Shown here piece after piece: positions 10,593-50,930 of a stretch of 64,000 bases of DNA. This DNA comes from Pseudomonas sp. Irchel s3h14. GTDB lineage: Bacteria > Pseudomonadota > Gammaproteobacteria > Pseudomonadales > Pseudomonadaceae. A model generated the notes under the pieces. That model was not told the DNA's origin and searched no databases. It saw only the letters and a list, made by a program, of their open reading frames with translations. How positions within the stretch are numbered: the first letter of the stretch is position 1; every line of letters starts with the position of its first letter. The position numbers were made by a program, and so were the translations under genes. The stretch lies in assembly GCF_900187425.1 (NCBI RefSeq), contig NZ_FYDJ01000002.1, positions 1 to 64,000 on the forward strand, read 5' to 3'.

Positions 10593-11279
10593 ATGTCTAC
10601 GGCAAAAACCGCACTCATCATCGGCGCCTCCCGAGGCCTGGGCCTCGGTCTGGTGAAAACCCTGCTGGCCGACGGTTGGCAGGTCACCGCCACCGTGCGC
10701 AACCCGCAGAACGCCGAAGCCTTGCAGGCCTTGGGCAAGGTGCGGATCGAAAAACTCGACATGGACGATCAGCAGGCGGTCATCGCCCTGAGCCAGCAGC
10801 TCAAGGGCGAAGTGTTTGACCTGCTGTTCGTGAATGCCGGGGTCAAAGGCCCGGAAGTTCAGACGCCGGGCGGCGCGACGCTGGCAGAGGTCGGCCAACT
10901 GTTCTTCACCAATGCGGTGGCGCCGATCAATCTGGCCCAGCGTTTTGTCGGGCAGATTCGTCCGGATACCGGCGTGCTGGCGTTCATGAGTTCGGTGCTG
11001 GGCAGCGTAACCATGCCGGATGCGCCCGAGCTGGCGTTGTACAAGGCCAGTAAAGCGGCGCTGAACTCGATGACCAGCAGCTTCGTCACTCAGTTGGGCG
11101 AGCAGAAACTCACCGTGCTGTCGCTGCATCCGGGTTGGGTGAAGACCGACATGGGCGGTGAAGGTGCCGACATTGATGTCGACACCAGTACGCGTGGGTT
11201 GGTCGATCAGGTGAATGCGTATACCGGCAAGGGCGGGCATCATTTTGTGAATTACCGGGGTGAAACCATTCCCTGGTAA
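10593..11279 (+). CDS. Short-chain dehydrogenase/reductase
   Basis: A 228-residue SDR. The cofactor site is GASRGLGLG (about residues 11-19) with TVRN at the end of beta-2, which suggests NADP(H). VNAG is at about 80, and the catalytic set includes S (MSSVLGS) and YKASK. It resembles the small C-factor-like SDRs. It is preceded by a good ribosome site (AAGGAAG) and sits directly after the MerR gene, so the two may be cotranscribed. The substrate is unknown. Confidence 0.85.
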   Translation: MSTAKTALIIGASRGLGLGLVKTLLADGWQVTATVRNPQNAEALQALGKVRIEKLDMDDQQAVIALSQQLKGEVFDLLFVNAGVKGPEVQTPGGATLAEVGQLFFTNAVAPINLAQRFVGQIRPDTGVLAFMSSVLGSVTMPDAPELALYKASKAALNSMTSSFVTQLGEQKLTVLSLHPGWVKTDMGGEGADIDVDTSTRGLVDQVNAYTGKGGHHFVNYRGETIPW

Positions 11280-11294
11280 TCACCCCAGATCCAA

Positions 11295-11384
11295 TGTGGG
11301 AGCGGGCTTGCTCGCGAAGGGGCCGTGTCAGTCAATATCAATGTCGACTGACACACCGCTTTCGCGAGCAAGCCCGCTCCCACA
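11295..11384. repeat. REP pair, GTGGGAGCGGGCTTGCTCGCGA type
   Basis: Two inverted REPs: TGTGGGAGCGGGCTTGCTCG at the left and its complement at the right, with an inner hairpin around GTCAGTC/GACTGAC. It lies between the SDR and the deaminase gene. Confidence 0.9.
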
Positions 11385-11537
11385 GGGGATTTGTGTTGTC
11401 CTGTCGGGCGAGGCTTGCCTGCCGAGCGGTTTTGTTCGAAACTCCGCACCTCGTCCCCCGCGGCGACCCTGGATCAGCAGACAGGGTAATCACTGAGCTG
11501 GCTAACCTGAACCCAACTTTCAGAGGAGCCGGCCAAC

Positions 11538-12896
11538 ATGCCTGCGACCCGTACCTGGTTAAAAAATCCCCTCGCGATCTTCACTGCCAATGGCCTCGAT
11601 GCCCGTGGCGGCCTGGTGCTGCAAGACGGTTTGATCGTCGAAGTGCTCTCCGCCGGCCAGCAACCTTCCGCGCCTTGTGGACAAGTCTTCGATGCCCGCG
11701 AGCATGTGATCCTGCCGGGACTGATCAACACCCATCACCACTTCTATCAAACCCTGACCCGCGCTTGGGCACCGGTGGTCAATCAGCCGTTGTTCCCGTG
11801 GCTGAAAACCCTCTACCCGGTCTGGGCCCGCCTCACCCCTGAAAAACTCGCCCTCGCCAGCAAAGTCGCGTTGGCCGAGTTGCTGCTGTCTGGCTGCACC
11901 ACCGCGGCCGACCACCATTACCTGTTTCCGCAAGGCCTGGAAAATGCGATCGACGTGCAAGTCGAAAGCGTTCGCGAACTGGGCATGCGCGCCATGCTGA
12001 CGCGCGGTTCCATGAGCCTCGGTGAAAAGGACGGCGGCCTGCCGCCGCAGCAGACCGTGCAGGAAGGCGAAGTGATCCTCGCCGACAGCCAACGCTTGAT
12101 CGCCGAGTACCACGAGCGTGGCGATGGCGCGCAAATCCAGATCGCACTGGCGCCCTGCTCGCCGTTCTCGGTGACCCCGGAAATCATGTCCGCCAGCGCC
12201 GAACTGGCGAACAAACTCGACGTGCGCCTGCACACCCATCTGGCGGAAACCCTCGACGAAGAAGACTTCTGCCTGCAACGCTTCGGGTTGCGCACCGTGG
12301 ATTACCTGGACAGCGTCGGCTGGCTCGGCCCGCGCACCTGGCTCGCTCATGGCATCCACTTCAACCCGGATGAAATCGCTCGCCTCGGCGCCGCCGGCAC
12401 CGGTATTTGCCATTGCCCTAGTTCGAACATGCGCCTGGCTTCCGGCATTTGCCCGACCCTGGACCTGACCGCTGCCGGCGCGTTGCTGGGCTTGGGCGTG
12501 GACGGTTCGGCGTCCAACGATGCATCGAACATGATGCTGGAAACCCGTCAGGCGCTGTACATTCAGCGGCTGCGTTATGGCGCCGAAAAGATCACGCCGG
12601 AACTGGTTTTGGGGTGGGCGACCAAGGGTTCGGCGAGTTTGCTCGGGCGTACCGATATCGGTGAACTGGCGGTGGGCAAGCAGGCGGATCTGGCGCTGTT
12701 CAAGCTCGATGAGCTGCGGTTCTCCGGCAGTCATGATCCGGTGTCGGCGTTGCTGCTGTGCGGCGCTGATCGGGCGGATCGGGTGATGGTCGGCGGCAAG
12801 TGGCGGGTGATTGATGGGCAGGTTGAAGGGCTGGATTTGAAGGGGTTGATTGCGGATCACAGCCAGGCGGCTCGGCAGCTAATCGCCGGTACCTGA
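11538..12896 (+). CDS. 8-oxoguanine deaminase (amidohydrolase superfamily)
   Basis: A 452-residue amidohydrolase of the TrzA/AtzB-like group. Metal ligands are visible as H66 and H68 in NTHHHF, a later H in HTHLAET, H in LAHGIHF, and D in GVDGSASND. The long N-terminal sequence, LTRGSMSLG and CHCPSSNMRLASG fit the characterised 8-oxoguanine deaminase of P. aeruginosa (PA0142), which turns 8-oxoguanine into urate. Many databases still label it hydroxydechloroatrazine ethylaminohydrolase. The ribosome site AGAGGAGCC lies before the ATG. Its neighbours (BMP binding protein, adenine deaminase) support purine salvage. Confidence 0.88.
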   Translation: MPATRTWLKNPLAIFTANGLDARGGLVLQDGLIVEVLSAGQQPSAPCGQVFDAREHVILPGLINTHHHFYQTLTRAWAPVVNQPLFPWLKTLYPVWARLTPEKLALASKVALAELLLSGCTTAADHHYLFPQGLENAIDVQVESVRELGMRAMLTRGSMSLGEKDGGLPPQQTVQEGEVILADSQRLIAEYHERGDGAQIQIALAPCSPFSVTPEIMSASAELANKLDVRLHTHLAETLDEEDFCLQRFGLRTVDYLDSVGWLGPRTWLAHGIHFNPDEIARLGAAGTGICHCPSSNMRLASGICPTLDLTAAGALLGLGVDGSASNDASNMMLETRQALYIQRLRYGAEKITPELVLGWATKGSASLLGRTDIGELAVGKQADLALFKLDELRFSGSHDPVSALLLCGADRADRVMVGGKWRVIDGQVEGLDLKGLIADHSQAARQLIAGT

Positions 12897-12906
12897 TCCA
12901 CCACCT

Positions 12907-13013
12907 GATCGTTCCCACGCTCCGCGTGGGAATGCCTCAATGGACGCTCTGCGTCCGCTCTTGGGACGCGGAGCGTCCCGGGCTGCATTCCCACGCAGAG
13001 CGTGGGAACGATC
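12907..13013. repeat. Long REP pair, GATCGTTCCCACGC type
   Basis: A 107-base palindromic element bounded by GATCGTTCCCACGCTC and its complement, with an inner hairpin around GACGCTCTGCGTCC. Further copies of the family are at 16679, 24180, 37491 and 53879. Its right edge supplies the stop codon of the small minus-strand gene that follows. Confidence 0.9.
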
Positions 13014-37573: not shown

Positions 37574-37987
37574 TCACTGACTCACTAAATCCATGCGAGG
37601 CTGCGGAAACAAATTATTCAACGTCTCCAACAACCGCACGTGATAAATCGGCTTGCGAAACAGGTCGAGCACCTGCAACCGCAACATGTCACTGACATCC
37701 TCCATGTCCGCATGCCCCGACGTCACAATCACCGGCAAATGCTGGCGGGACGTATGTTCACGCAACCGCTTGATCAACGACATGCCACTCTCCTCCGGCA
37801 TCCGCAGATCCGTGATCACCAACGCAATATCAGGGTGGCGCGTCAGATGTTGCAGCGCGAGTTTGACCGAGGTGGCGGTAAAGCAATTGAAGCCCTCGCC
37901 CTCCAGCAACTCCGCCAACTCCAGCAACGCATCCTCCTCATCATCGACCAGAAGTAGCTGTTGGCGTGGAAGTGAGGGAGCGTTCAT
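37574..37987 (-). CDS. Receiver-only response regulator of the Tad locus
   Basis: A 137-residue single CheY-like receiver with no output domain. The phospho-acceptor Asp is in VITDLRMP, the acidic pair in LLVDDEEDA, the switch S in VTSGHAD and the Lys in FRKPI. Start 37987 is preceded by AGGTG; the longer frame is poor. It lies just after flp on the same strand, 80 bases away, so it may be a phosphate sink or protein-interaction switch tied to the PprA-like kinase. Confidence 0.85.
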   Translation of the reverse strand: MNAPSLPRQQLLLVDDEEDALLELAELLEGEGFNCFTATSVKLALQHLTRHPDIALVITDLRMPEESGMSLIKRLREHTSRQHLPVIVTSGHADMEDVSDMLRLQVLDLFRKPIYHVRLLETLNNLFPQPRMDLVSQ

Positions 37988-38067
37988 GGGCAACACCTGC
38001 AATGGACTAAGCGCTGACGTTAGAAGCCCTTTGGAGCATTGGCAAGCTACCGGTGCGTCTTCTCGCG

Positions 38068-38268
38068 TCAATCGATGGCGGCTTTGATGGTGCCGAACAG
38101 GGTTGTTATCGAGGTTCCCATCCCTGCACTGAGGCCGGCAATCACCACCGCGACCATGGCGGCAACAATCGCGTACTCAATACCTGAGGCACCCTCGGTA
38201 TCTTTGGCCAGGCCTTTGTAAAAAGCGATTTCGGATTTGATCTTCTGAGCAATCTTGGTAAAGGACAT
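38068..38268 (-). CDS. flp: Flp-type (type IVb) pilin
   Basis: A 66-residue prepilin. The processing site fits the Flp rule G/xxxxEY: G then ASGI then EY, followed by a hydrophobic helix (AIVAAMVAVVIAGLSAG). The leader is about 25 residues. Cleavage would be done by the FppA-like peptidase at 45242. Start 38268 follows CAGGAG. It is divergent from the rcpC-tad genes, and it is the structural subunit of the pilus. Confidence 0.93.
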   Translation of the reverse strand: MSFTKIAQKIKSEIAFYKGLAKDTEGASGIEYAIVAAMVAVVIAGLSAGMGTSITTLFGTIKAAID

Positions 38269-38592
38269 GGCAGTTCTCCTGAAAGACGGCGGGTGTTGCA
38301 CGGTCGCAACATGATTCCCCTTTGCCAGCATCAGCATTGTCGGCATTCCCCGTACCCACAACTGTAAGAACGAATTATCACTAAAGTATTAATTGCTTCG
38401 TTGACGTCAAAAAAGTCACGTTTTCGCCCTGACTACTTACTTTCGTTAGTTATTTTCAGGCCCGTAATGGCTTTTTGCTCTAGCTGAGCTACCGTCAAAT
38501 AGCGAAATAGTTCCATGTTCATAGCTGCCTGATTGCGAAGTTGTCTCGTAGGATGCGACGAGGTCTCAAGCAGCAGGAAAGGGAGAGCCGTC
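38269..38592. promoter_or_regulatory. Divergent flp / rcpC control region
   Basis: A 324-base AT-rich region between flp and rcpC. It contains the ten-base palindrome TTGACGTCAA at 38401-38410 and a TACTTTC half-site at 38438-38444 that recurs in a palindrome upstream of pprB. The response regulator PprB is the expected activator. No gene is supported here; a minus frame at 38433-38645 lacks a ribosome site and overlaps rcpC. Confidence 0.55.
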
Positions 38593-39540
38593 ATGAACAG
38601 TCGTATCACTCTGGGCCTGGCCGGTTTGTTTCTGGTGGGCGCCATTGTTGCCGGTTACTGGGGCCTCACGCTAAGCCGCCAACCCGCTCCCGAGTCTGTC
38701 GTGCAACCCGAGATCGTCACGCCTGCACCCATCGCCCAGACGCTGCCCCCCGTGGACGACCCCACCCGCCAACCGGTGGTGGTGTTGCTGCATGATGTGC
38801 CACCGTTCGTGCCGATCAGCGCCGCCGACGTGACCCTGGAAAAACTCCGTACCGTCCCGGCCGGCAGCCTGAGCCGCCTCGATCAAGCGATTGGCCGAAC
38901 GCCCTGGCGCGCCCTCAGCGCCGGCACCTGGCTCAATGATGAAAGCTTTGAAGCCGGCGGCAGACTGGCGCGGATGATTCGTCCCGATGAACGCGCCCTC
39001 GCCGTCGCAGTGGATGAAGTGATCAATGCCGGAGGGCAACTGACACCCGGGGACTATGTCGATGTGCTGCTGTTTCTGCGCATGGACAACAACAACCTTC
39101 AGCCGTCGGCGCAACTGGTGGTGCCGGCCTTGCGGGTACTCGGGGTGGGCGAACAGATGGGGTTGACCAACGACGGTCAACCCGCAAGCCCGGCCCGCAG
39201 CATCGAAGAAAAACTCAGGCAGGAACAATTGCGCGCCAGCGCCCGCAGCGTCTTGCTTGCCGTCCCCGAACAACTATTGAGCCGCCTGATGTTGGCGGCC
39301 CAGGCTGGCGTGCTGCGCCTGGCCGTACGCAGCGCCGATGAAAAACGTCTGGCTCGTTACTGGGCCGGTAAAAGCGATTCATCGGCCAAACTTGCCAGTG
39401 CCAACCGCGAGTTGATCCAGTTCAGCCAACTGGCCATGACGCCCCCACCCAAACCTGTCGTCACCAACGGCAGCACAGCACCGCGCAAGTCGAGCGTGGT
39501 AGTCATCCGCGGCAACGAAATCACCCAACAACCCCCCTGA
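38593..39540 (+). CDS. rcpC: Tad pilus assembly protein RcpC/CpaB
   Basis: A 315-residue CpaB/RcpC protein. An N-terminal signal anchor (LGLAGLFLVGAIVAGYWGL) is followed by an SAF domain (VVVLLHDVPPFVPISAADVT, about residues 57-130) and the RcpC/CpaB C-terminal domain with GDYVDVLLF. In other Tad systems it stabilises and associates with the secretin in the periplasm. Start 38593 has GGGAGAG upstream. A secretin gene would normally follow but is not present. Confidence 0.9.
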   Translation: MNSRITLGLAGLFLVGAIVAGYWGLTLSRQPAPESVVQPEIVTPAPIAQTLPPVDDPTRQPVVVLLHDVPPFVPISAADVTLEKLRTVPAGSLSRLDQAIGRTPWRALSAGTWLNDESFEAGGRLARMIRPDERALAVAVDEVINAGGQLTPGDYVDVLLFLRMDNNNLQPSAQLVVPALRVLGVGEQMGLTNDGQPASPARSIEEKLRQEQLRASARSVLLAVPEQLLSRLMLAAQAGVLRLAVRSADEKRLARYWAGKSDSSAKLASANRELIQFSQLAMTPPPKPVVTNGSTAPRKSSVVVIRGNEITQQPP

Positions 39541-39561
39541 ATCGAGCAAGGACGCATCAAA

Positions 39562-39651
39562 ATGCGCAGTCGTTCCATGCCCCTGTTTGAAGCGCAACTA
39601 TGACCCGAACTGGTATCACCTGAACTGCCTCGAAAACTGCAACTTCGATAA
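39562..39651 (+). pseudogene. rcpA: Probable remnant of the secretin gene rcpA
   Basis: After rcpC a Shine-Dalgarno AAGGA (39549-39553) precedes an ATG at 39562, giving MRSRSMPLFEAQL then TGA. In the same frame after the TGA come PELVSPELPRKLQLR and a TAA at 39651, reminiscent of the tail of an outer-membrane secretin. Canonical Tad loci carry a 400-500-residue secretin exactly here. The simplest reading is an internal deletion leaving the first 13 and last 15 codons. Because it is so short the identity is inference. Confidence 0.4.
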
Positions 39652-39669
39652 ACGCAGCGGATTATCGCA

Positions 39670-40866
39670 ATGAGCCAGAGCCAGAACCTGAGCCAGACCT
39701 TCCTCGCGATCACGCGCAACAGCACCGACCTTGAGTGGCTGCAAGGCGCCCTCGCCCCGTTGGGCCAAGTGGTCAGCGCCGGCGGTGGCAGCCTCGACGA
39801 ATTGCTGGCGCTGGTGGACGTGACCTTCGCCAGTCTGGTGTTCATCGGTCTGGACCGCGAACACGTGGTGGCCCAAAGCGCACTGATCGAAGGTGCCCTG
39901 GAAGCCAAACCGATGCTGGCGATCGTCGCGCTGGGCGATGGCATGGACAACCAACTCGTACTCAACGCCATGCGCGCCGGCGCACGGGATTTCGTGGCCT
40001 ATGGTTCGCGCTCCAGTGAAGTCGCGGGGTTGGTGCGACGGCTGAGCAAACGCCTGCCACCCGTGGCCCCGAACACCCAACTGGGCAGCCTGACGGTGCT
40101 CTACGGTGTGCAGATCAACGCCGACGGCGCGCTGCTCGCCACGCACATGGCGCAAGTGGTGCAGAAGAGCGGACAGCAAACGCTGTTGCTGGACCTTGGC
40201 CTGCCGCGCGGTGACAGCCTGGCCTTGCTCGGGCTGGAGAGTTCGTTCCACTTCGGCGATGCACTCCGGCACTTGCGGCGCCTCGACGCGACGCTGATCG
40301 ACAGCGCGTTCACCAACTGCGCCGCCGGGTTGCGGATCCTCGCCTACGCCCACCACGATGAGCCGCTGGAACACACCAGCACCGCCGAGTTGTACATGCT
40401 GCTCAGCGCCCTGCGCCAACACTTCCAGCACATCGTGGTGAACCTGACGGGTCAGCCGGACAGCGAAGCGCTACGCACCTTCGTCACCCATTGCGACAAG
40501 TTGCTGTGGTACACCGATCAGAACGTACTCGACTGCCGTCGCAACCTGGCGGTACTCAACCTGTGGCGCGAAAAAGGCATGAAGCTCGATCACGCCAGAC
40601 TGCTGGTGGACCGCTACCTGCGCAACGTCGCACCGGACTCCGACACCCTGAGCAAAAGCTTCGGCATGGAGATCATCGCGACCCTCGTCTACAGCCCGGA
40701 AGTGCGGCTTAACGCCAAGAACCAAGGTGTGACGTTGTTTGAACTGGCCCCCCGCGAAGGCCTGACTCAAAGCCTGCGCGCCCTCGGTGATCGGTTGGCC
40801 AAGCGCTCCGAGGGCCTGGCCAAACCCAAGTCTGGCTGGTTCAACCGGTTGAGGGGTGCGCAATGA
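39670..40866 (+). CDS. tadZ: Tad pilus localisation ATPase-like protein TadZ/CpaE
   Basis: A 398-residue TadZ/CpaE protein with an N-terminal receiver-like domain (about 10-120; GDGMDNQLVLNAMRAGARDF) and a ParA/MinD-like C-terminal domain. The usual Walker A (KGGxGKT) is replaced by VQINADGALLATHM, so ATP binding is doubtful, but the following strand LLLDLGLPRGD and the later FELAPRE tail are conserved. It normally marks the pole where the pilus machine assembles. Its ATG follows the rcpA scar by 18 bases. Confidence 0.85.
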   Translation: MSQSQNLSQTFLAITRNSTDLEWLQGALAPLGQVVSAGGGSLDELLALVDVTFASLVFIGLDREHVVAQSALIEGALEAKPMLAIVALGDGMDNQLVLNAMRAGARDFVAYGSRSSEVAGLVRRLSKRLPPVAPNTQLGSLTVLYGVQINADGALLATHMAQVVQKSGQQTLLLDLGLPRGDSLALLGLESSFHFGDALRHLRRLDATLIDSAFTNCAAGLRILAYAHHDEPLEHTSTAELYMLLSALRQHFQHIVVNLTGQPDSEALRTFVTHCDKLLWYTDQNVLDCRRNLAVLNLWREKGMKLDHARLLVDRYLRNVAPDSDTLSKSFGMEIIATLVYSPEVRLNAKNQGVTLFELAPREGLTQSLRALGDRLAKRSEGLAKPKSGWFNRLRGAQ

Positions 40867-42143
40867 GCGGTGAAAAACTCTTTGGTGCCCCTGTGCGCAC
40901 CACCACTGGCAACACCGACCACGAAGGTCTGAAACTGGTGCTGCACCGCTACATCATCGACGCCATCGAGGAGTCCGGCCAAAACCTGCTGGAGGGTTCA
41001 CGGCAGGTGCTCTCGCAGTTCGTCATCGACAAGGTTGCCGAGTACATCGCCCGGCTGCACCTGGCGATTTCCCGCTATGAAATGGAGCGTCTGGCCGAAG
41101 AAATCGTCGATGAACTCACCGGTTTCGGCCCCTTGGAAGTGCTGCTGCGAGACCCGGCGGTGACGGAGATCCTGGTCAACGGCCCGCACCGGGTGTTCAT
41201 TGAACGCGACGGCGTACTGCATCAAAGCGACTTGCGCTTCATCGATGCGCATCACATCGAACGGGTCATGCAACGGATTCTCGCGCCCCTCGGTCGACGG
41301 CTCGATGAGTCGTCGCCAATGGTCGACGCACGACTGCCCGACGGCAGCCGGGTCAACGCGATCATTCCACCGATTGCGCTCGATGGTCCCTGCCTGTCGA
41401 TACGTAAATTTCGCAAGGACATGCTCAAAAGCTCGGACCTGATGGCGATGCAAACCATCGACCAGGCGATCTTCGACTTTCTTCAGGAGGCCGTGGGCAA
41501 GCGCTGCAACATCCTGATCAGCGGCGGCACCGGCACCGGCAAGACCACGCTGTTGAACATTCTCAGCCAGTTGATCAACCCTCACGAGCGACTCGTCACC
41601 ATCGAAGACGTCGCCGAACTGCACCTGGGGCACCCTCACGTGGTGCGCCTGGAAACCCGACCGCCGAATGCCGAAGGCCACGGCGAAGTGAAAGCCAGTG
41701 ACCTGATTCGCAACGCCCTGCGGATGCGCCCGGACCGAATCATCCTCGGCGAGATTCGTGGCGTCGAAGTGGTGGACGTACTCACCGCAATGAACACCGG
41801 CCACGACGGCTCCATGAGCACCGTGCACGCCAACAACGCCCAGGATGCGCTGTTGCGCCTGGAGACACTGGTGGGCCTGACGGGCCGCACCATCGCCGAA
41901 CGTACCTTGCGGCAAATGATCTGCGCCGCACTGGACGTAGTGATCCAGCTGAAGCGCATGCCCGACGGCCGCCGTTGCGTCAGCGAAGTGGTGGAGGTGA
42001 TCGGCTTGCGTGATGACGTGTATGTCACCAACACGTTGTTCCGGCTCGACCAGCGCAGCGGCATCGGATTCATGCGCGAGGCGGTCAACCCCGCCGGCGA
42101 CAAACTGCGCCGTGAGTTGGCGCTCTCTCCCTCTGCGTATTGA
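40863..42143 (+). CDS. tadA: Tad pilus assembly ATPase TadA/CpaF
   Basis: A 426-residue type II/IV secretion ATPase. Walker A is GGTGTGKTT (about residues 221-229), Asp box VTIEDVAEL, Walker B DRIILGEIRG, and the His box GHDGSMSTVHANN. It energises Flp pilus extension and retraction at the inner membrane. Its ATG overlaps tadZ by four bases, showing coupling. Confidence 0.94.
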   Translation: MSGEKLFGAPVRTTTGNTDHEGLKLVLHRYIIDAIEESGQNLLEGSRQVLSQFVIDKVAEYIARLHLAISRYEMERLAEEIVDELTGFGPLEVLLRDPAVTEILVNGPHRVFIERDGVLHQSDLRFIDAHHIERVMQRILAPLGRRLDESSPMVDARLPDGSRVNAIIPPIALDGPCLSIRKFRKDMLKSSDLMAMQTIDQAIFDFLQEAVGKRCNILISGGTGTGKTTLLNILSQLINPHERLVTIEDVAELHLGHPHVVRLETRPPNAEGHGEVKASDLIRNALRMRPDRIILGEIRGVEVVDVLTAMNTGHDGSMSTVHANNAQDALLRLETLVGLTGRTIAERTLRQMICAALDVVIQLKRMPDGRRCVSEVVEVIGLRDDVYVTNTLFRLDQRSGIGFMREAVNPAGDKLRRELALSPSAY

Positions 42144-42153
42144 AGGCCACGGC

Positions 42154-43038
42154 ATGCTCAAACCGGTGCTGCTCATCCTCGTTTGCCTGGTCTTGCTCGG
42201 ACTGTCGATCCGCTTGTTTTATCGCGGTTTGCGCCAGACCGGCACCGAGCGGGTACTGGGACGCCTGACCCAGGGGCAACCGCAGCCGGTACTGACGAAA
42301 ACCTCCTGGGCGGGTCTGGATCGGGCCTTTCTGCGGGCTGGCCTTGGGCGTCCCACCGAGCGTCTGGGGGTATGGCTGCTGCTCTGGGCCTTTGGCATCT
42401 TGCTCGGATTTGCTACCGGTGGCTGGGGTGGCTTGCTGGCTCTGTTACTGCTACCGCCGCTGATGCTGCGTCTGTATGTCAATTGGCGTTATCAACGCCG
42501 ACTCCAGCGCATGATCGAACAACTGCCACCAATGCTCGATCACACCGTGCGCAGTCTGAAGTCCGGGCGCACCCTGGCCGATGCGGTGCTGGGCGCCATC
42601 GACACCGCTGAAGACCCGCTGAAAAACGCCATGGGGCGGGTTCAGCGCAACGTGCAGTTGGGGGTCAGCCTGCCGGATGCCGCGGCAGACCTCGCTGAGC
42701 TGTATGAGAAAGACGAACTTCGCCTGTTCGCGCTCGGTTTGAAGGTCAATCACCGCTATGGCGGCAATGCCAGCGAATTGCTGGAAAACCTGATCAAGAT
42801 GATCCGGGAGCGCGAGCAGGCTGCGCGCCAGCTCAGGGCCATGACCGGTGAAACCCGGGTGACCGCGTGGGTCCTGGGCTGTTTGCCGATTGGTCTGGCC
42901 GGCTATTTCCTCGCGACTAACCCTCATTACTTGCTCGCCATGTGGCACGACGATTCGGGGCAAATCATGCTCGCGTCCGCGTTCGGCTTGCAGGTGGTCG
43001 GTAGCCTGGCGCTCTGGCACATGTTGCGCAGCGTATGA
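42154..43038 (+). CDS. tadB: Tad pilus inner-membrane platform protein TadB
   Basis: A 294-residue T2SSF-domain protein. Helices lie at about residues 4-20, 69-105, 243-262 and 274-290, with the cytoplasmic T2SF domain at about 120-240 (QLPPMLDHTVRSLKSGRTL, VNHRYGGNASELLENL). Start 42154 follows AAGG ten bases after the tadA stop; the longer frame overlaps tadA. It forms the platform together with TadC. Confidence 0.92.
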   Translation: MLKPVLLILVCLVLLGLSIRLFYRGLRQTGTERVLGRLTQGQPQPVLTKTSWAGLDRAFLRAGLGRPTERLGVWLLLWAFGILLGFATGGWGGLLALLLLPPLMLRLYVNWRYQRRLQRMIEQLPPMLDHTVRSLKSGRTLADAVLGAIDTAEDPLKNAMGRVQRNVQLGVSLPDAAADLAELYEKDELRLFALGLKVNHRYGGNASELLENLIKMIREREQAARQLRAMTGETRVTAWVLGCLPIGLAGYFLATNPHYLLAMWHDDSGQIMLASAFGLQVVGSLALWHMLRSV

Positions 43039-43925: not shown

Positions 43926-43936
43926 AGGGATCGTTA

Positions 43937-44062
43937 TTGAAAAGCTATCAGCATGAGATCCCGGAGTACTTTGATCAGTATGAGAGCGGGCAAGTGGGCG
44001 GTGGGACGGGGGGTAGTCTTGATCCGGGAATTGGACGCTTGGGGCTAGCGTTTTTTGGCTGA
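43937..44062 (+). CDS. Possible 41-residue glycine-rich peptide after tadC
   Basis: An open frame with a TTG start eight bases after GAGGG, eleven bases beyond the tadC stop. It begins with a polar acidic segment (SYQHEIPEYFDQYESG), continues GGGTGGS and ends GRLGLAFFG. I do not recognise it. The non-ATG start, shortness and lack of any known homologue make it weak; it could be a remnant. Confidence 0.25.
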   Translation: MKSYQHEIPEYFDQYESGQVGGGTGGSLDPGIGRLGLAFFG

Positions 44063-44126
44063 CTTTTTTCGGGCCGGCATTCCGGGTAATGCCAGTCAGT
44101 TAAGCAATTTCAGCCGCGACACTCTT

Positions 44127-44272
44127 TGTAGCAGCTGCCGAGCCCGCGAGGCTGCGTTCGGCTGCGTAGCAGTCGTGAGTCCGGCTGACGCGGTATGCCT
44201 GACGTACCGCAATGACTGATTTGCGACTGCTACGCAGCCGAACGCAGCCTCGCAGGCTCGGCAGCTGCTACA
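44127..44272. repeat. 146-base inverted repeat, distinct from the REP families
   Basis: Arms of about 48 bases: TGTAGCAGCTGCCGAGCCCG on the left, then GCTGCGTTCGGCTGCG, with near-complement on the right ending CGGCAGCTGCTACA. The one or two mismatches are compensated by a long loop. It is a separate family from the GATCGTTCCC and GAGCGGGCTT elements in the window, and occurs once here. Confidence 0.85.
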
Positions 44273-44345
44273 GATCGCGTTACGGCTTAACACATTCCAG
44301 GCGCTTGTAAAAAAGTGAATCGCGGTCGATACCGCCAACAAAAAC

Positions 44346-45241: not shown

Positions 45242-45712
45242 CTAGTGAAACCAGGCGAGTGTGAGCAACAGACCCACCAACACGAAGGGTGCAAAGGGCT
45301 GTTTCTTTGACATTCCAGGCCCCAGATATCGAAGATGATTTCTAAGCCCTTGGCCCATATGAAGCCAGACTCTTGGCGCCAGCAGCAGCCACAGCACACT
45401 GGCCAATCCGGCACCGATGAACACGCCAAGCAGGTGCATGCCGTCCATCGCCAGGCCCAGGCCGGTCATCAGTTTCACATCGCCTGCGCCCAAGCGTCTC
45501 AGCGCATAACCGGGCAAGGTAAAGGCCAGCGCCAGCAAAAAAGCCCAACCGCCCTGCACCGCCTCGGCCCCCAGCCAGGTAGTGCCCGTCCACAGGAGAT
45601 ACGCCAGCGCCAACACCGCTGCGCCAAGGGTCAGGCCATTGGCGATGTGTCGTTCTCGAGCATCCTGTGCTGCGCATAGCGTCAGCCAGATCAGTAATAC
45701 AAAGCTCTGCAT
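45242..45712 (-). CDS. fppA: Prepilin peptidase, FppA-type (A24)
   Basis: A 156-residue type IV prepilin peptidase lacking the N-terminal methyltransferase domain, as in Flp-dedicated peptidases. Six hydrophobic helices are predicted. Catalytic aspartates are D17 (QDARERH) and D78 in the GAGDVKLMTG motif. It processes Flp and the TadE-like pseudopilins at the inner membrane. It precedes pprB on the same strand with 113 bases between, so pprB probably has its own promoter as well. Confidence 0.9.
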   Translation of the reverse strand: MQSFVLLIWLTLCAAQDARERHIANGLTLGAAVLALAYLLWTGTTWLGAEAVQGGWAFLLALAFTLPGYALRRLGAGDVKLMTGLGLAMDGMHLLGVFIGAGLASVLWLLLAPRVWLHMGQGLRNHLRYLGPGMSKKQPFAPFVLVGLLLTLAWFH

Positions 45713-45787
45713 CCGGTAAAAAACGTCCGTTTTGGCTGAATGATTCTATGCTGATATCACGTCGTGAATATCAGGGTAGTCGCAGTC

Positions 45788-46228
45788 ATGAAAATAGGCC
45801 TCCCCCGTAAGCAAAAAGGCGCTGTAGCGATTGAGTTCGCTTTGGTTTTTCTCATCTTTTTCGCCGTGTTCTATGGAATCGTCACTTACAGCTTGCCGCT
45901 GTTGCTGATGCAATCGTTCACCCAGTCGACCGCCGAAGCGGTGCGCCGAAGCGTGGCGCTGGACCCGAGCACCCCCGGGTACGACACCGCGGTAAAAACC
46001 ATTGCCACGACAGAACTGAGCCGACAGCTGGCCTGGATTCCTGCCGCTCTGAATTTCAATGTCGCCACCGACGCCAGCGCCACCTACGTAGGCGGCGTGT
46101 TGAAGGTCAGCATCAACTACCCCACCAGCAAACTGCAGCAGGTCATCCCGTTTCTGAATTTGCCGGGAATTGGCCAAGTGCCCAATCTGCCGGCAAACCT
46201 CAAAGCCAGTTCGAGCCTGCAATTTTGA
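45788..46228 (+). CDS. tadE: TadE-like minor pilin
   Basis: A 146-residue TadE-type pseudopilin. A basic leader (RKQK) then GAVAIEFALVFLIFFAVFYG shows the TadE processing site (after G, with E at +5). The mature part is mostly polar. It is needed with TadG for pilus biogenesis in other systems. Start 45788 (MKIGLPRK) was chosen; a GTG at 45764 adds eight residues. The kinase gene follows with overlapping start (TTGA). Confidence 0.87.
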   Translation: MKIGLPRKQKGAVAIEFALVFLIFFAVFYGIVTYSLPLLLMQSFTQSTAEAVRRSVALDPSTPGYDTAVKTIATTELSRQLAWIPAALNFNVATDASATYVGGVLKVSINYPTSKLQQVIPFLNLPGIGQVPNLPANLKASSSLQF

Positions 46229-48978
46229 GTTCCGCAGACAAACTCTTCGGGCGCCTGCTTAACCGCCATCCGCCTCAGCCAGTGGACACGCCAGACACCC
46301 TGAGCGTGCAAAGTGTCGGTTTGCAGATGCATCTGGATGCCGAAGGTCGAGTGACTCACCTGACCGGCCCGCTGCGGCATGTGCTGGCCCAGCAGACACC
46401 CGCTGCGCAAGCACCGCATTTGCTCGATTTCCTCATGCCTCACAGCGGCCTCGCCGTTGAAGGCTCGCCCGTCGACTGGCAGGGACAGAGTCTGGACCTG
46501 GACTTTTACAGCCTCAACGGACAACCCCTGCACCTGCGTGGCTGGGTCCAGCCATTGGCCGATGCCTGGCTGTTGCAGTTGCTGGACATCGGCGACTTGT
46601 TGCTCGATCGCCGGCAATCACGCAGCCGCGAGCAATGCCAATTACTCGCAGCGCAGATCGGCGAACAGTTGCGCCGGTGCAACCTGACGCGCCTGCCCGA
46701 GGTGTTGGTGGAACAGCTGCAAGGCCTGGCCCAGCGTTTCCACATGCCATGCATTGCGGTGGCGTTACTCGATGAACAGGAAGAAGGCTGGCAGATTCAC
46801 CAGCATTACACGGCCTTCGATGCGCCCCACCTGTGGCAAAACGCTCAGCGCCTGCGCACCGGGCTCGACAGCCTGAACGGCTCTGCGCCGCAATGCCTGA
46901 CGCCCGCTGAACATCCCCGCTTGCAAGGCATCTTCGGTAATGCCGAAGGGTTCGCGGTGCCCTATCACGATGCTCAGGGTGTGGTCGCCTGGTTGCTGTG
47001 TGGCCTTTATCCGGTGCAACAACATGCACCCGACCTGAATGATCGCGACTGGTTACAACTGACCGCCGCGCTGGCAGGCCCGTTGCTTGAGCGCTTGCGC
47101 GAGCACCGGCACCATCTGCAACTGGAACGGCTGGAGTCGCTGCAAGCCTTGCTCGGCACCGGATGGTGGGAGGTGTTCAGCGACAGTCGCGAGGTGCAAT
47201 TGGCGCCGTCGTTGGCCAGTCACCTGAACCTTGCGATCGATCGTTTGCCGCTGCACGACTGGCTTGAGCGGGTGCACCCCGCCGACCGGGAAGAGCTGAG
47301 CAGTCGTCTGCAAGCCTTGCAAGACGACGGTACCCCGCTGCTGCTGTGCGTGCGTTTGGCACAAACGCCGAACTGGTATCGCCTGCAAGGCCAGGTCCTG
47401 GGCATCGGTAAAAGCCGGCGGTTGGTGGGCTTCATGCTCGACATCAGCGACATCAAAAACCAGGAGCAAAACGCCGCAGCGGCCCATGCCCGACTGGATA
47501 ATCTGATCGCCAGCTCGCCGGCGGTGATCTACGTGCAGCGCTATGTCGAAGGTGCGCTGCAACCGACGTTTTTCAGTGACAGCCTACTGCCGCTGCTCGG
47601 CTGGACACTGGCTGATTGCGCGACGGGGACCTTGGTTGAAAGGGTCCACCCTGAGGACCGCGATCGGTACTTCGAACGTACCCGGCATTTGCTGCGTGAA
47701 GGTTCGGTGCGCGCCCGCTATCGGCTGCGCGACAGTCGCGGCGAATACCATTGGCTACTCGATGAAGCCAAGCTACTGCGCGACGACCTTGGTTTGCCGG
47801 TGGAAGCCGTCGGCCTGTGGCTGGACGTCACCGAAGCAACCCTGGCCGCCGAACAGGTGAAGCAGAGTGAAGAACGTTACCGGATCCTGGTGGAAGACTC
47901 TCCGGCGATGATCTGCCGCTACCGCCCGGACCTGACCCTGACCTTCGGCAACCGTCCGCTGGCGACTTACCTGGAGTGCCAGCCCGAACAACTGCCCGGG
48001 GTGAATCTGGGCAGCTGGATGTCGCAGGAACAGCGCAAAGCGTTTCTCCAGCGGCTCAGCCGACTCAGCCCGGAATTCCCGGTCAGCACCGCGGAAATCA
48101 ACCTGCAACTGCCGGGACGGGAACATGCCTGGTGGGTGTGGTCGGATCGCGGGGTGTTCGATGAGCACGGTCATTTGCTGGAGATTCAGGCGGTGGGTCG
48201 CGACAACACCGAGGTCCGCCGCGCCCAGCAGCAGCTCACCCAAAGTGCAAAAATGGCCACCCTCGGTGAAATGGCCACAGGGCTGGCCCATGAAATCAAT
48301 CAGCCGTTGAATGTGATGCGCATGGCCATCGTCAACGTGCTCAAGCGTCTGAGCAACGGCGATGCGCAGATCGACTACCTGACCGACAAGCTCAACCGCA
48401 TCGATGCACAGGTCCAGCGCGCCGCGCGGGTGGTGGATCACATGCGGGTATTTGGCCGCCGCTCGGAGATCGAGCAACATCCGTTTAATCCGGCGCAAGC
48501 CATCGAAGGCACGCTGTCGTTGCTGGCCGAAGGGATGCGCGGCAAAGGGGTCGACCTGCGGGTCAACGAGACAGGGTTTGAAGTGAAAGTGCGCGGTTAC
48601 GTCGATCAGCTCGAACAGGTGTTGATCAATCTGATGGTCAACGCGCGGGATGCGTTGCTAGGCAAACGCGAGGCCGATCGCGAGTTCAAACCGTGGATCT
48701 CGGTGTACGCCGAACGTGATGAGTATTCGGTGCGACTGTGGGTCGAGGACAACGGCGGCGGTATCGATCCGCGGTTGCTGGAGCGGATTTTCGAGCCGTT
48801 CTTCACCACCAAACCCGTGGGTGTCGGCACCGGGCTCGGGTTGTCGGTGAGTTACGGCATCGTCGAGAACATGGGCGGAAAACTGAGCGTTAGAAACTCG
48901 ATCGAGGGCGCACGGTTTTGTATCGAACTGCCGATTGCCGCCGACGATCAGATCACCAGCGTCGCTCGTCCTGAGTGA
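46225..48978 (+). CDS. pprA: PprA-like multi-PAS sensor histidine kinase
   Basis: A 917-residue kinase without a clear transmembrane segment. Domains: N-terminal PAS-like (20-120), a GAF-like region (about 150-290), and three PAS domains (about 300-410, 415-545, 550-665, with DLTLTFGNRPL in the third). The HisKA box has the phospho-acceptor H689 (GLAHEINQPLN), and HATPase_c spans about 740-905 with VNARDAL, DNGGGID and GTGLGLSVSYG. The start is TTG at 46225, overlapping tadE. The likely partner is PprB. Confidence 0.85.
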   Translation: MSSADKLFGRLLNRHPPQPVDTPDTLSVQSVGLQMHLDAEGRVTHLTGPLRHVLAQQTPAAQAPHLLDFLMPHSGLAVEGSPVDWQGQSLDLDFYSLNGQPLHLRGWVQPLADAWLLQLLDIGDLLLDRRQSRSREQCQLLAAQIGEQLRRCNLTRLPEVLVEQLQGLAQRFHMPCIAVALLDEQEEGWQIHQHYTAFDAPHLWQNAQRLRTGLDSLNGSAPQCLTPAEHPRLQGIFGNAEGFAVPYHDAQGVVAWLLCGLYPVQQHAPDLNDRDWLQLTAALAGPLLERLREHRHHLQLERLESLQALLGTGWWEVFSDSREVQLAPSLASHLNLAIDRLPLHDWLERVHPADREELSSRLQALQDDGTPLLLCVRLAQTPNWYRLQGQVLGIGKSRRLVGFMLDISDIKNQEQNAAAAHARLDNLIASSPAVIYVQRYVEGALQPTFFSDSLLPLLGWTLADCATGTLVERVHPEDRDRYFERTRHLLREGSVRARYRLRDSRGEYHWLLDEAKLLRDDLGLPVEAVGLWLDVTEATLAAEQVKQSEERYRILVEDSPAMICRYRPDLTLTFGNRPLATYLECQPEQLPGVNLGSWMSQEQRKAFLQRLSRLSPEFPVSTAEINLQLPGREHAWWVWSDRGVFDEHGHLLEIQAVGRDNTEVRRAQQQLTQSAKMATLGEMATGLAHEINQPLNVMRMAIVNVLKRLSNGDAQIDYLTDKLNRIDAQVQRAARVVDHMRVFGRRSEIEQHPFNPAQAIEGTLSLLAEGMRGKGVDLRVNETGFEVKVRGYVDQLEQVLINLMVNARDALLGKREADREFKPWISVYAERDEYSVRLWVEDNGGGIDPRLLERIFEPFFTTKPVGVGTGLGLSVSYGIVENMGGKLSVRNSIEGARFCIELPIAADDQITSVARPE

Positions 48979-50930
48979 CAACTGAGGTTGGCGCCGACAT
49001 CGACCTTGTTCAGATCGATCCCCAGGCTGAGCAGCAGTGTGTTGATCAAGGTGTCGAGTAACGGGCTGAGCACGCTGTTGATCGCATTGACCAACAATGT
49101 TGTGACCGTGCTGAGGATCGCCCCCAGACCACCGACCAGACTGCCCGTCGGGCCGTACATGTCGACCTTGATGTTGGTCGCCGTGTCGGTAAGGCTGCTG
49201 ACGATATTGCTGGTGGAATAGGAATAGTAGAACGGTGGCTGGTTGATCTCTGGCAGGCTGGTGGCCGGCGGTGCGGAATAGACGTGCGGCATGTTGGCGC
49301 TCTGTGCCACGGTGGTGTCGGCCATGATACTGATGCCGCCGCCGACGCCCGGAATCCGTGGGTCGCAGGAGATGGGCAGGAACAGAATCCTCATACAGGT
49401 TTTCACCCCGATATCGATCACCTTCAACGGCTGTACCTCTACCGCCGGTGGCGTGGTGTTGCTGCCGAAAGCGGTGGCTGGATCGATCTTGCCGATCTTC
49501 AGATTTACCAGCGAAGTGCTGGTGTTGGTGGTCAGGGTTTTGTTGGTGGTACTGACGCAACTGTAGGCAGTGACATAGCTGTTGGCGCTGGCAACGTCCA
49601 GCGCCACGTCGATACGTATCGGTGGCGGCAGCACGATGATGTCGGGAGTCTGACAGGGCACGAGCAAGGCACAGGTCAGTGAGTTGAGCACTCCCACCAG
49701 GTTGAGATTGAGCAAAGCGTTGAGTGTGTTGGTCAGCGGGCCTGCGAGATCAGCCGCCGCATTGATCAGCGCCACGATGGTATTGAGCACCGGCAAGTCG
49801 ATCGACAGCAATGTCCTGATCTGGGCAGTTCGCACATAGATGCGGTTGGGCCCCAATGGAGCCAGCGCGGCGTTTTTCGGATTGCCGATGGCCGAGAGCT
49901 GTGGCGGTTCCAGCACCTGTACTCGAGCAGTGATTTGCGCCAGCCCCGCGAGGTTGATCGGCAGGGTCGCCACCAGGCCGTTTTTCTTGTTGGCCAGTTG
50001 CACGACCGCTTCGATCAGGTCGAACACTTTCAGGTTGGTCCCCAGCGCCGTCACGGTGCTGCCAGCCTCGACGTGCAGCACGTTGCCGAGTACGACGGTG
50101 GTTGCGCCTGCCGCGACCTTCAGCGCTTGAAGACTCGCAATGGTTGCGGTCGCACCGAGTGTGCCGCCGGGGTCCAGTACATTGACGGCGGTCTGGATCA
50201 GCTGGCTGACGGCAATCGTATTGCCCAATACCTGGTCATACCCGGCAGCGCTGAGGTTAAGGTCGACCTTCAATCGGTCAAGGTAGCCGAGCAGGTTGAT
50301 ATCAGTGCTCACCAGTCCGTTCCAGCCCGCCGCGTTGATGTTCAGGTTGCCTCCGAGCAAACCACCGAACAGCGCGTTGAGCGTGGCCGATTTGCTGGTG
50401 TCGACGCTCAGCGTCGTGCTGCGCAGGGTCAGCGAAGCCAGCGGTGGCGGTAATGCGGCGACAGCGCTGGCCGTCAGGTTGATGGTCGCCGCGCGTGGAG
50501 CACCCCCAAACAGGGCGCCGACACCGCCGGCGACACTCTGCGGGACCGAATGGCTGGCGATCACCCGAATGGCTTCGCTCTTGCTCGGGTCGGCGCCAAA
50601 TACCCGAAGGTTATTGGCATCCAGGGTCAAGGCGCCGCAAGCGACCAGCAGAGTGTGATTGGGGTCAGGAAGGGTGAAGCCGTTACGGTTTGCGCTGGCG
50701 GTCGCATAGACGGTAGCGGAGTTGCCAGCGGCGCAATCCCCCCCTCGGGTGGAAGCTTCAAGTGCGGCCATGTCCGCTACGCGCTGCAGGTCACGTTTTT
50801 TCAGGTACAAACGACCGCTGTCGACCACTACCAGCAAGAACATCAGGGCCATGCCCAATGTCAGCGCCGCCATCAAACCGATCGCCCCCCGTTGCCGGGA
50901 CGGACTGCGAAACTGCAAACGGGGAGACAT
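48948..50930 (-). CDS. tadG: TadG-like pilus assembly protein
   Basis: A 660-residue protein. The N-terminal TadE/TadG-like anchor (RQRGAIGLMAALTLGMALMF) is followed by DUF2134-type RRVADMAALEA... features: KKRDLQRVADMAALEAS. The bulk is a low-complexity, Ala/Leu/Asn-rich beta region from 160 to 640 with several cysteines near the end. TadG is secreted or surface-linked in other Tad systems. Its last 31 bases overlap the end of the kinase gene, tail to tail. Confidence 0.87.
   Translation of the reverse strand: MSPRLQFRSPSRQRGAIGLMAALTLGMALMFLLVVVDSGRLYLKKRDLQRVADMAALEASTRGGDCAAGNSATVYATASANRNGFTLPDPNHTLLVACGALTLDANNLRVFGADPSKSEAIRVIASHSVPQSVAGGVGALFGGAPRAATINLTASAVAALPPPLASLTLRSTTLSVDTSKSATLNALFGGLLGGNLNINAAGWNGLVSTDINLLGYLDRLKVDLNLSAAGYDQVLGNTIAVSQLIQTAVNVLDPGGTLGATATIASLQALKVAAGATTVVLGNVLHVEAGSTVTALGTNLKVFDLIEAVVQLANKKNGLVATLPINLAGLAQITARVQVLEPPQLSAIGNPKNAALAPLGPNRIYVRTAQIRTLLSIDLPVLNTIVALINAAADLAGPLTNTLNALLNLNLVGVLNSLTCALLVPCQTPDIIVLPPPIRIDVALDVASANSYVTAYSCVSTTNKTLTTNTSTSLVNLKIGKIDPATAFGSNTTPPAVEVQPLKVIDIGVKTCMRILFLPISCDPRIPGVGGGISIMADTTVAQSANMPHVYSAPPATSLPEINQPPFYYSYSTSNIVSSLTDTATNIKVDMYGPTGSLVGGLGAILSTVTTLLVNAINSVLSPLLDTLINTLLLSLGIDLNKVDVGANLSCHSGRATLVI

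What the first reader, a model, noticed from the sequence alone, without database searches (positions are those of the whole stretch)
39541..39669. Secretin gene rcpA appears deleted from the Tad locus, leaving a scar
rcpC is followed at normal spacing by a good ribosome site (AAGGA) and ATG, but only 13 codons (MRSRSMPLFEAQL) before a stop. In the same frame, 15 more codons (PELVSPELPRKLQLR) lead to a second stop, 18 bases before tadZ. Secretins normally sit exactly here in Pseudomonas Tad loci. All inner-membrane parts (tadZ, A, B, C), the pilin, peptidase and regulators remain. If correct, the pilus would lack its outer-membrane pore and may be inactive, or may use another secretin.
Basis: partly seen in the sequence, partly recalled or inferred. 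Interest (0 to 1): 0.72.

Follow-up and report, generated by a model that had tools for sequence, protein, structure and literature searches.

The report
One outer-membrane gate for two pili
This Pseudomonas has lost the outer-membrane pore genes from one Tad pilus gene cluster but keeps an intact set beside a second Tad cluster elsewhere in its genome, and the same loss recurs in relatives that carry such a set elsewhere, so the two pili likely share a single exit gate.

Summary
The deletion is real. Against close relatives, 39562-39673 is codons 1-9 of rcpA plus its last 26 codons, with about 1,160 bp missing. The locus is not simply gateless. Contig C21 of this genome holds a second Tad locus (Tad-2) with intact rcpA-tadD-DUF3613 at its end. 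In 91 Tad-1 loci the three genes are kept together (64) or lost or damaged together (27), needing at least 9-12 changes on the tree. Of 80 named relatives, all 20 scarred ones carry the module elsewhere; 19 of 20 have Tad-2, against 0 of 60 intact ones. The 20th keeps the module alone after Tad-2 was excised. Two genomes show the reverse: module at Tad-1, none at Tad-2. Scarred Tad-1 genes stay under purifying selection. Most likely one secretin-pilotin-DUF3613 module serves both Tad machines in trans. The genomic pattern is shown; the shared use is inferred.

The parts
38068..38361 (-). flp pilin ORF (97 aa as listed; a shorter start is likely)
   Evidence: Pfam Flp_Fap PF04964, 35.1 bits, above cut-off
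38593..39540 (+). rcpC, inner-membrane/periplasmic alignment-complex protein; its C-terminal VIRG tail is kept
   Evidence: Pfam RcpC PF16976; matches PDB 9gzr RcpC; VIRG-type core visible in all 27 scarred loci
39562..39588 (+). 5' remnant of rcpA (codons 1-9, MRSRSMPLF)
   Evidence: identical to the RcpA start in L038, L039, L041
39589..39592 (+). rcpA deletion junction (about 1,160 bp missing)
   Evidence: alignment with L041
39593..39673 (+). 3' remnant of rcpA (last 26 codons and stop, overlapping the tadZ start)
   Evidence: tblastn 81% to L038 RcpA residues 398-423; translation
39670..40866 (+). tadZ
   Evidence: Pfam TadZ_N
40863..42143 (+). tadA ATPase
   Evidence: Pfam T2SSE; dN/dS 0.10 among the four A-type scarred loci
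42127..43038 (+). tadB
   Evidence: ORF; 94-96% identical to tadB of L037-L041
43035..43925 (+). tadC
   Evidence: Pfam T2SSF
43926..43936 (+). left flank of the tadD deletion; all of tadD and the first 65 codons of the DUF3613 gene are missing at 43936/43937
   Evidence: alignment with L041, both flanks conserved
43937..44017 (+). 3' remnant of the DUF3613 gene (LKSYQHEIPEYFDQYESGQVGG...)
   Evidence: matches the C-terminal end of the DUF3613 protein after tadD in L038 and L041
44346..45128 (-). pprB-like response regulator
   Evidence: Pfam Response_reg + GerE; the name pprB follows its position and P. aeruginosa
45242..45712 (-). prepilin peptidase
   Evidence: Pfam Peptidase_A24
45764..46228 (+). 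TadE/TadF-like minor pilin
   Evidence: Pfam TadE
46225..48978 (+). pprA-like PAS histidine kinase
   Evidence: Pfam HATPase_c, HisKA, PAS
48948..50930 (-). tadG-like protein
   Evidence: Pfam Tad PF13400

Best explanation
The window's Tad-1 locus has lost rcpA, tadD and most of a DUF3613 gene by two deletions, and its pilus likely exits through the intact RcpA-TadD-DUF3613 gate encoded beside a second Tad locus (Tad-2) on contig C21 of the same genome. Shown: the scars, the intact module on C21, joint loss of the three genes in relatives, and its tight link to having the module elsewhere. Inferred: RcpA2 (piloted by TadD2) forms the outer-membrane ring onto which either inner-membrane machine docks, through RcpC in Tad-1 and CpaB in Tad-2. 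Inferred from trees: Tad-2 once had a distant native secretin and its own TPR lipoprotein, swapped these in two lineages for the Tad-1-type module, and the redundant Tad-1 copy was then lost repeatedly. Inferred too: DUF3613 is a third working part of this type of gate.
For: (1) Own genome: three Pfam-secretin proteins, namely PilQ, a 310-aa secretin-like protein and RcpA2; only RcpA2 is Tad-type, and it is followed by tadD2 and DUF3613. (2) Joint fate: of 91 Tad-1 loci, 64 keep all three genes; 26 have none of them at full length and one (L108) holds damaged pieces of all three. (3) Repeated loss: fewest 12 changes on the tree, 9 forced by starred branches; several different scar architectures. 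(4) Link: of 80 named genomes, all 20 scarred ones encode rcpA-tadD-DUF3613 elsewhere and 19 of 20 have Tad-2; 0 of 60 intact ones have Tad-2. Independent pairs 8 to 0 with 1 tie, sign test p 0.008. (5) No gateless genome seen: 167 of 167 TadZ-bearing genomes in the genus sample also have an RcpA match at E up to 1e-30. (6) Orphan case: in G275 and G300 an excision of about 11.6 kb removed flp to tadC of Tad-2 but left rcpA2-tadD2-DUF3613, while Tad-1 is scarred; between these two genomes rcpA2 has dN/dS 0.19. (7) Reverse case: in G244 and G256 the only RcpA match lies beside tadZ, and their Tad-2 has neither native secretin nor module. (8) Four scarred sets keep dN/dS 0.04-0.27 in five Tad-1 genes, close to five intact sets (0.04-0.24). 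(9) RcpC keeps a VIRG-type tail core in 27 of 27 scarred loci (printed tails); the C-terminal hairpin of P. aeruginosa RcpC is modelled to dock on RcpA and is needed for aggregation (PMC12307814, passages). (10) Tad-2 lost its native secretin in two clades (AU p 0.0002 against one native clade), with the cpaB-tadG gap 44-122 nt in 20 loci versus 1,835-2,279 nt in 11 native ones.
Against: There are no expression or protein data: that RcpA2 serves Tad-1 is inferred. tadD2 in the orphan lineage is only moderately constrained (dN/dS 0.49, p 0.003 against neutrality). The window's own scar group has somewhat higher ratios (tadA 0.10, tadZ 0.16, rcpC 0.27) and is not shown to be one clade, so part of its divergence may predate the loss; the window's RcpC tail differs at two otherwise common positions, so relaxation in this strain is possible. 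G070 keeps both modules. The stricter tail pattern (VIRG-type core followed by N, S or T) misses 2 of 27 scarred and 11 of 64 intact loci. The placing of displaced RcpAs among Tad-1 RcpAs rests on branches of 82-92% and a very long outgroup branch. Ten of the 91 loci were picked because of their search results, the 80 named ones are the best TadZ matches, and L204 is the same sequence as L091, so raw counts are not a random sample. In the genus searches only six candidates per genome were scored, so a second weak secretin or a Tad-2 could be missed there; in the named genomes all candidates were scored.
Confidence: 0.85

Rival explanations
1. Tad-1 is dead or dying: once rcpA and tadD were deleted the inner-membrane genes were left as slowly decaying relics, and RcpA2 serves Tad-2 only.
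For: The local secretin and pilotin genes are gone; the window's scar group shows slightly raised dN/dS in some genes.
Against: No internal stops in the matched stretches of the five Tad-1 genes in the 27 scarred loci (stretches cover at least 55% of a gene). Three scarred sets with dS about 0.2-0.3 keep tadA at 0.04-0.06 and tadZ at 0.05-0.07; the window's set (dS about 0.1) has 0.10 and 0.16. The orphan module is kept after Tad-2 was excised. Among the named genomes loss occurs only where another module exists.
Confidence: 0.1
2. Tad-1 exports its pilus through another secretin, such as PilQ of the type IVa pilus.
For: PilQ is present in the genome.
Against: A PilQ bypass would not predict that rcpA loss follows the presence of RcpA2; the RcpC tail, part of the hairpin that in P. 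aeruginosa docks on the RcpA N-domain, is kept. PilQ was not searched for in the relatives.
Confidence: 0.03
3. Assembly collapse or sequencing error at the rcpA site.
For: A draft assembly of 46 contigs.
Against: The same scar type in three other assemblies including a complete chromosome, different scars in other genomes, and simultaneous loss of tadD about 4 kb away.
Confidence: 0.01

Closest known systems
Pseudomonas aeruginosa Tad (flp-tad-rcp) locus, PA4293-PA4306
   Same: Same gene order around rcpC-[rcpA]-tadZ-A-B-C-[tadD], with pprA/pprB regulators nearby (PMC3510237, table passage). RcpA2 and TadD2 match the solved RcpA-TadD complex 8odn.
   Different: Here rcpA, tadD and most of the gene after tadD are missing from the locus and an intact set lies beside a second Tad locus.
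Sinorhizobium meliloti flp-2 cluster and Locus 3 (PMC10934763; passages, and part 1 of the Discussion section)
   Same: A Tad cluster without secretin genes, with a separate locus holding a secretin and a TPR protein; the authors conclude that flp-2 makes pili.
   Different: There the separate locus is proposed to serve flp-2 and flp-1 has its own secretin. Here one module is the only Tad-type gate found for two machines, and it occurs at either locus.
Myxococcus Kil system (PMC8460266, passages)
   Same: Tad-like machine whose proteins come from two gene clusters.
   Different: One machine split in two, not two machines sharing one pore.
Secretin co-option in T3SS and filamentous phages (PMC6668835, passages)
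   Same: Secretins pass between machines over evolution.
   Different: That paper reports the Tad secretin as one clade with little transfer between system types; here the swap is between two Tad systems, repeated within one genus, as a three-gene module.

Membership tests
Tad / type IVc pilus system (window locus, Tad-1) | TadA ATPase, TadB/TadC platform, TadZ, Flp pilin, prepilin peptidase, RcpC | tested here: met
   Pfam hits and tblastn
Tad / type IVc pilus system (window locus, Tad-1) | own RcpA/CpaC secretin and TadD pilotin in the locus | tested here: not met
   only remnants at 39562-39673; tadD absent
Tad secretin RcpA (protein on C21) | Secretin domain plus pilus N-terminal domain, match to solved RcpA, conserved GLSQ-type tail | tested here: met
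   PF00263, PF13629; 8odn E 4e-130; tails
TadD pilotin (protein on C21) | TPR lipoprotein matching solved TadD | tested here: met
   8odn chain B E 1.4e-42; TPR models are below Pfam cut-offs; lipobox seen by eye only
TadD pilotin (protein on C21) | binds the RcpA C-terminus and is needed for secretin assembly | not testable with these tools
   shown for P. aeruginosa in PMC10499894 (section 11 read)
Shared gate (one secretin for two Tad machines) | both machines depend on the same RcpA in vivo | not testable with these tools
   inferred from comparative data only
DUF3613 as part of the gate module | present with Tad-1-type rcpA-tadD wherever examined, absent otherwise | tested here: met
   64 of 64 intact Tad-1 loci; 20 of 20 displaced modules and 19 of 19 (six genomes in both); none at full length in 27 scarred loci, though L108 has two pieces spanning profile positions 16-88; 0 of 11 native Tad-2. 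Pfam match PF12266

The most novel reading that the evidence does not exclude
In these Pseudomonas a single exchangeable outer-membrane gate (RcpA-TadD-DUF3613) serves two different Tad pilus machines in one cell. The gate behaves as a separable module that moves between loci, displaced Tad-2's own secretin twice, and can outlive the machine it sits beside; DUF3613 is an unrecognised third part of it.
Probability: 0.72. Interest if true: 0.8.

Novelty: new variant of a known kind. Interest (0 to 1): 0.74.

Why it matters
If true, two extracellular machines compete for, or take turns at, one outer-membrane pore, so inner-membrane machines and gates are interchangeable parts within one cell. The relatives supply natural knock-outs: gate lost here, gate lost there, one machine excised with the gate kept. 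They make machine-gate specificity directly testable. The finding also warns that pipelines calling a Tad locus complete or broken by its local secretin would misjudge these genomes, and it gives the uncharacterised DUF3613 family a testable role.

Tried and rejected
Assembly error: rejected, because the same and other scars occur in other assemblies, one complete. 'Naturally adjacent rcpC-tadZ': rejected, since 60 of 80 named relatives have a full rcpA there. A single ancestral loss: rejected by tree and scars. A single swap of the Tad-2 secretin: rejected by AU test. Literature: the listings (titles and starts of abstracts; one search found no paper) showed no report of two Tad systems sharing a secretin; one search was about a phage that borrows a secretin and gave nothing used here; one search listed four papers with DUF3613 (listing only), none titled on pili; led to PMC3510237, whose table lists PA4298 as hypothetical (passage). 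Only open-licence papers are held, so absence there is weak. Not tried: structure prediction or fold search; a search for PilQ in the relatives; promoter analysis of the module. Not resolved: G007's module lies on its own 4.1-kb contig and its Tad-2 contig ends just after tadC; the Tad-1 locus of G102 and, under those handles, of G114 and G233 was not fetched; G123 has Tad-2 but no RcpA match at E 1e-30.

Full report
Observation. rcpC (38593-39540) is followed by an ATG and eight more codons (39562-39588) identical to the first nine rcpA codons of close relatives L038, L039 and L041. After a four-base junction at 39589-39592 the last 26 rcpA codons follow (39593-39670), and their stop overlaps the tadZ start. 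About 1,160 bp are missing compared with L038, L039 and L041. Flp pilin, RcpC, TadZ, TadA, TadB, TadC, prepilin peptidase, TadE/F- and TadG-like proteins and both regulators remain.

The gate elsewhere in the genome. Of three Pfam-secretin proteins in the genome, one is PilQ (TIGR02515, 541 bits), one is a 310-aa secretin-like protein below the NCBIfam cut-offs, and one, RcpA2 on contig C21 (15188-16420, minus), matches the solved RcpA of P. aeruginosa (8odn, E 4e-130). It is followed by tadD2 (8odn chain B, E 1.4e-42) and a DUF3613 gene. The three genes run towards the end of a second Tad locus (Tad-2: flp, tadV, an AAA ATPase, cpaB, tadG, tadE, cpaE, cpaF, tadB, tadC).

Relatives. I took the 80 best named TadZ loci, the window, and ten further loci from unnamed genus genomes that I chose because of their search results. 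One of the ten, L204, is the same sequence as L091, so there are 90 distinct ones. In these 91 loci rcpA, tadD and DUF3613 are all present in 64. In 26 none is present at full length (short remnants remain in some), and in L108 all three persist only as damaged pieces. Scars differ in length and architecture. On a quick tree of the five Tad-1 proteins the loss needs at least 12 changes, 9 of them forced by starred branches.

What loss goes with. RcpA was searched in all 80 named genomes. Each of the 20 scarred or decayed genomes has a full-length RcpA away from tadZ, followed by tadD and a full-length DUF3613. Each of the 60 intact ones has one full match, which is its Tad-1 copy; one, G318, has a second partial match at 41%. 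The Tad-2 marker CpaE is found in 19 of 20 scarred and 0 of 60 intact genomes. Over phylogenetically independent pairs among the 91 loci, loss at Tad-1 goes with a module elsewhere 8 to 0, with 1 tie (sign test p 0.008). In the genus sample of 298 genomes (the own one included), 167 have TadZ and all 167 have an RcpA match at E up to 1e-30. Fifteen have both Tad-1 and Tad-2: 12 have a single RcpA away from Tad-1, 11 of them near the Tad-2 cpaE and one (G007) on a separate small contig; 2 (G244, G256) have a single RcpA at Tad-1; and 1 (G070) has both. For G102, G114 and G233 I rely on search places, not on a fetched Tad-1 locus under that handle. Only six candidates per genome were scored in the genus searches.

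Two natural experiments. In G300 (P. laurylsulfativorans, L048/L221) and G275 (L016/L185) no Tad-2 CpaE is found, Tad-1 is scarred, and the module stands alone. Alignment with the related genome G302 shows that about 11.6 kb from flp to tadC of Tad-2 was excised while the module and adjoining sequence on both sides remain. Between these two genomes rcpA2 has dN/dS 0.19 (p 3e-10 against neutrality), tadD2 0.49 (p 0.003), and Tad-1 rcpC and tadZ 0.18 and 0.02. In the opposite direction, G244 and G256 have Tad-2 with neither native secretin nor module, and keep an RcpA at Tad-1; the whole Tad-1 module was fetched for G244 only. In the Tad-2 tree they sit inside a clade whose other members carry the module away from Tad-1.

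Origin. Eleven Tad-2 loci from genomes without Tad-1 carry a native secretin between cpaB and tadG (31-40% to RcpA2; tail GHDL plus N, R or K) and a TPR lipoprotein after tadC (Pfam TPR and secretin domains checked for one). The 20 other fetched Tad-2 loci lack that secretin, with a cpaB-tadG gap of 44-122 nt against 1,835-2,279 nt; none matches the native TPR gene, although in L190 the contig ends just after tadC. The displaced RcpAs form two clades, placed among Tad-1 RcpAs with moderate support and a very long outgroup branch. Native-type Tad-2 loci are rejected as a single clade (AU p 0.0002), so the native secretin was replaced at least twice.

Is scarred Tad-1 alive? None of the 27 scarred loci has an internal stop in the matched stretches of the five genes. 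Pairwise dN/dS in four scarred sets is 0.04-0.27 per gene, against 0.04-0.24 in five intact sets. The window's set is at the higher end (tadA 0.10, rcpC 0.27). A VIRG-type core near the RcpC C-terminus is seen in all 27 scarred tails printed; a stricter pattern that also asks for N, S or T after it misses 2 of 27 scarred and 11 of 64 intact loci, and the window has two departures from the common tail. CpaB of Tad-2 ends in a similar core. In P. aeruginosa the RcpC C-terminal hairpin completes the RcpA N-domain sheet in the model and is needed for aggregation, although a construct without it still co-purified with the RcpA N-domain (PMC12307814, passages). RcpA's last four residues bind TadD and are essential for assembly (PMC10499894, section 11).

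Reading. I conclude that a three-gene gate module, RcpA-TadD-DUF3613, likely serves both Tad machines in trans. The genomic pattern is shown; the shared use, and any role of DUF3613 in the gate, are inferred. The nearest precedent I read is S. meliloti flp-2, a Tad cluster without its own secretin that makes pili, thought to use a separate secretin-TPR locus (PMC10934763, passages and part 1 of the Discussion). I found no report of two Tad systems sharing one gate in the searches named in Tried and rejected.

Noticed in passing
window 44109-44290: A 67-nt inverted repeat (88% complementary, 48 nt between arms) lies between the tadD scar and the pprB-like gene; the stretch of relative L041 that was searched has none. 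It may be a REP-type element (recalled, not tested).
   Followed up: partly
C21 of the own genome (L004:6071-6340) and window 43937-44017: A DUF3613 gene (PF12266) travels with Tad-1-type rcpA-tadD in every case examined and is absent from the 11 native Tad-2 loci; a candidate third gate component.
   Followed up: yes
L108, about 6513-7001 and 11218-12942: A decaying intermediate: a 125-aa rcpA piece, a tadD piece and DUF3613 pieces in one long open frame, in a genome that carries the module at Tad-2.
   Followed up: partly
G290:C1:2037811-2039027 (L214): cpaE of Tad-2 is split into two frames in this genome without Tad-1; possibly a decaying Tad-2.
   Followed up: no
G318:C99:20683-21396: The genome of L038 has a second secretin, 41% identical to RcpA2 over 240 residues, although no Tad-2 CpaE was found; origin not examined.
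   Followed up: no
window 37574-38071: A receiver-only response regulator gene on the minus strand beside the flp pilin gene.
   Followed up: no
L095 and L109, tadB: Internal stop in the matched tadB stretch in two intact Tad-1 loci; not checked for frameshift or start choice.
   Followed up: no
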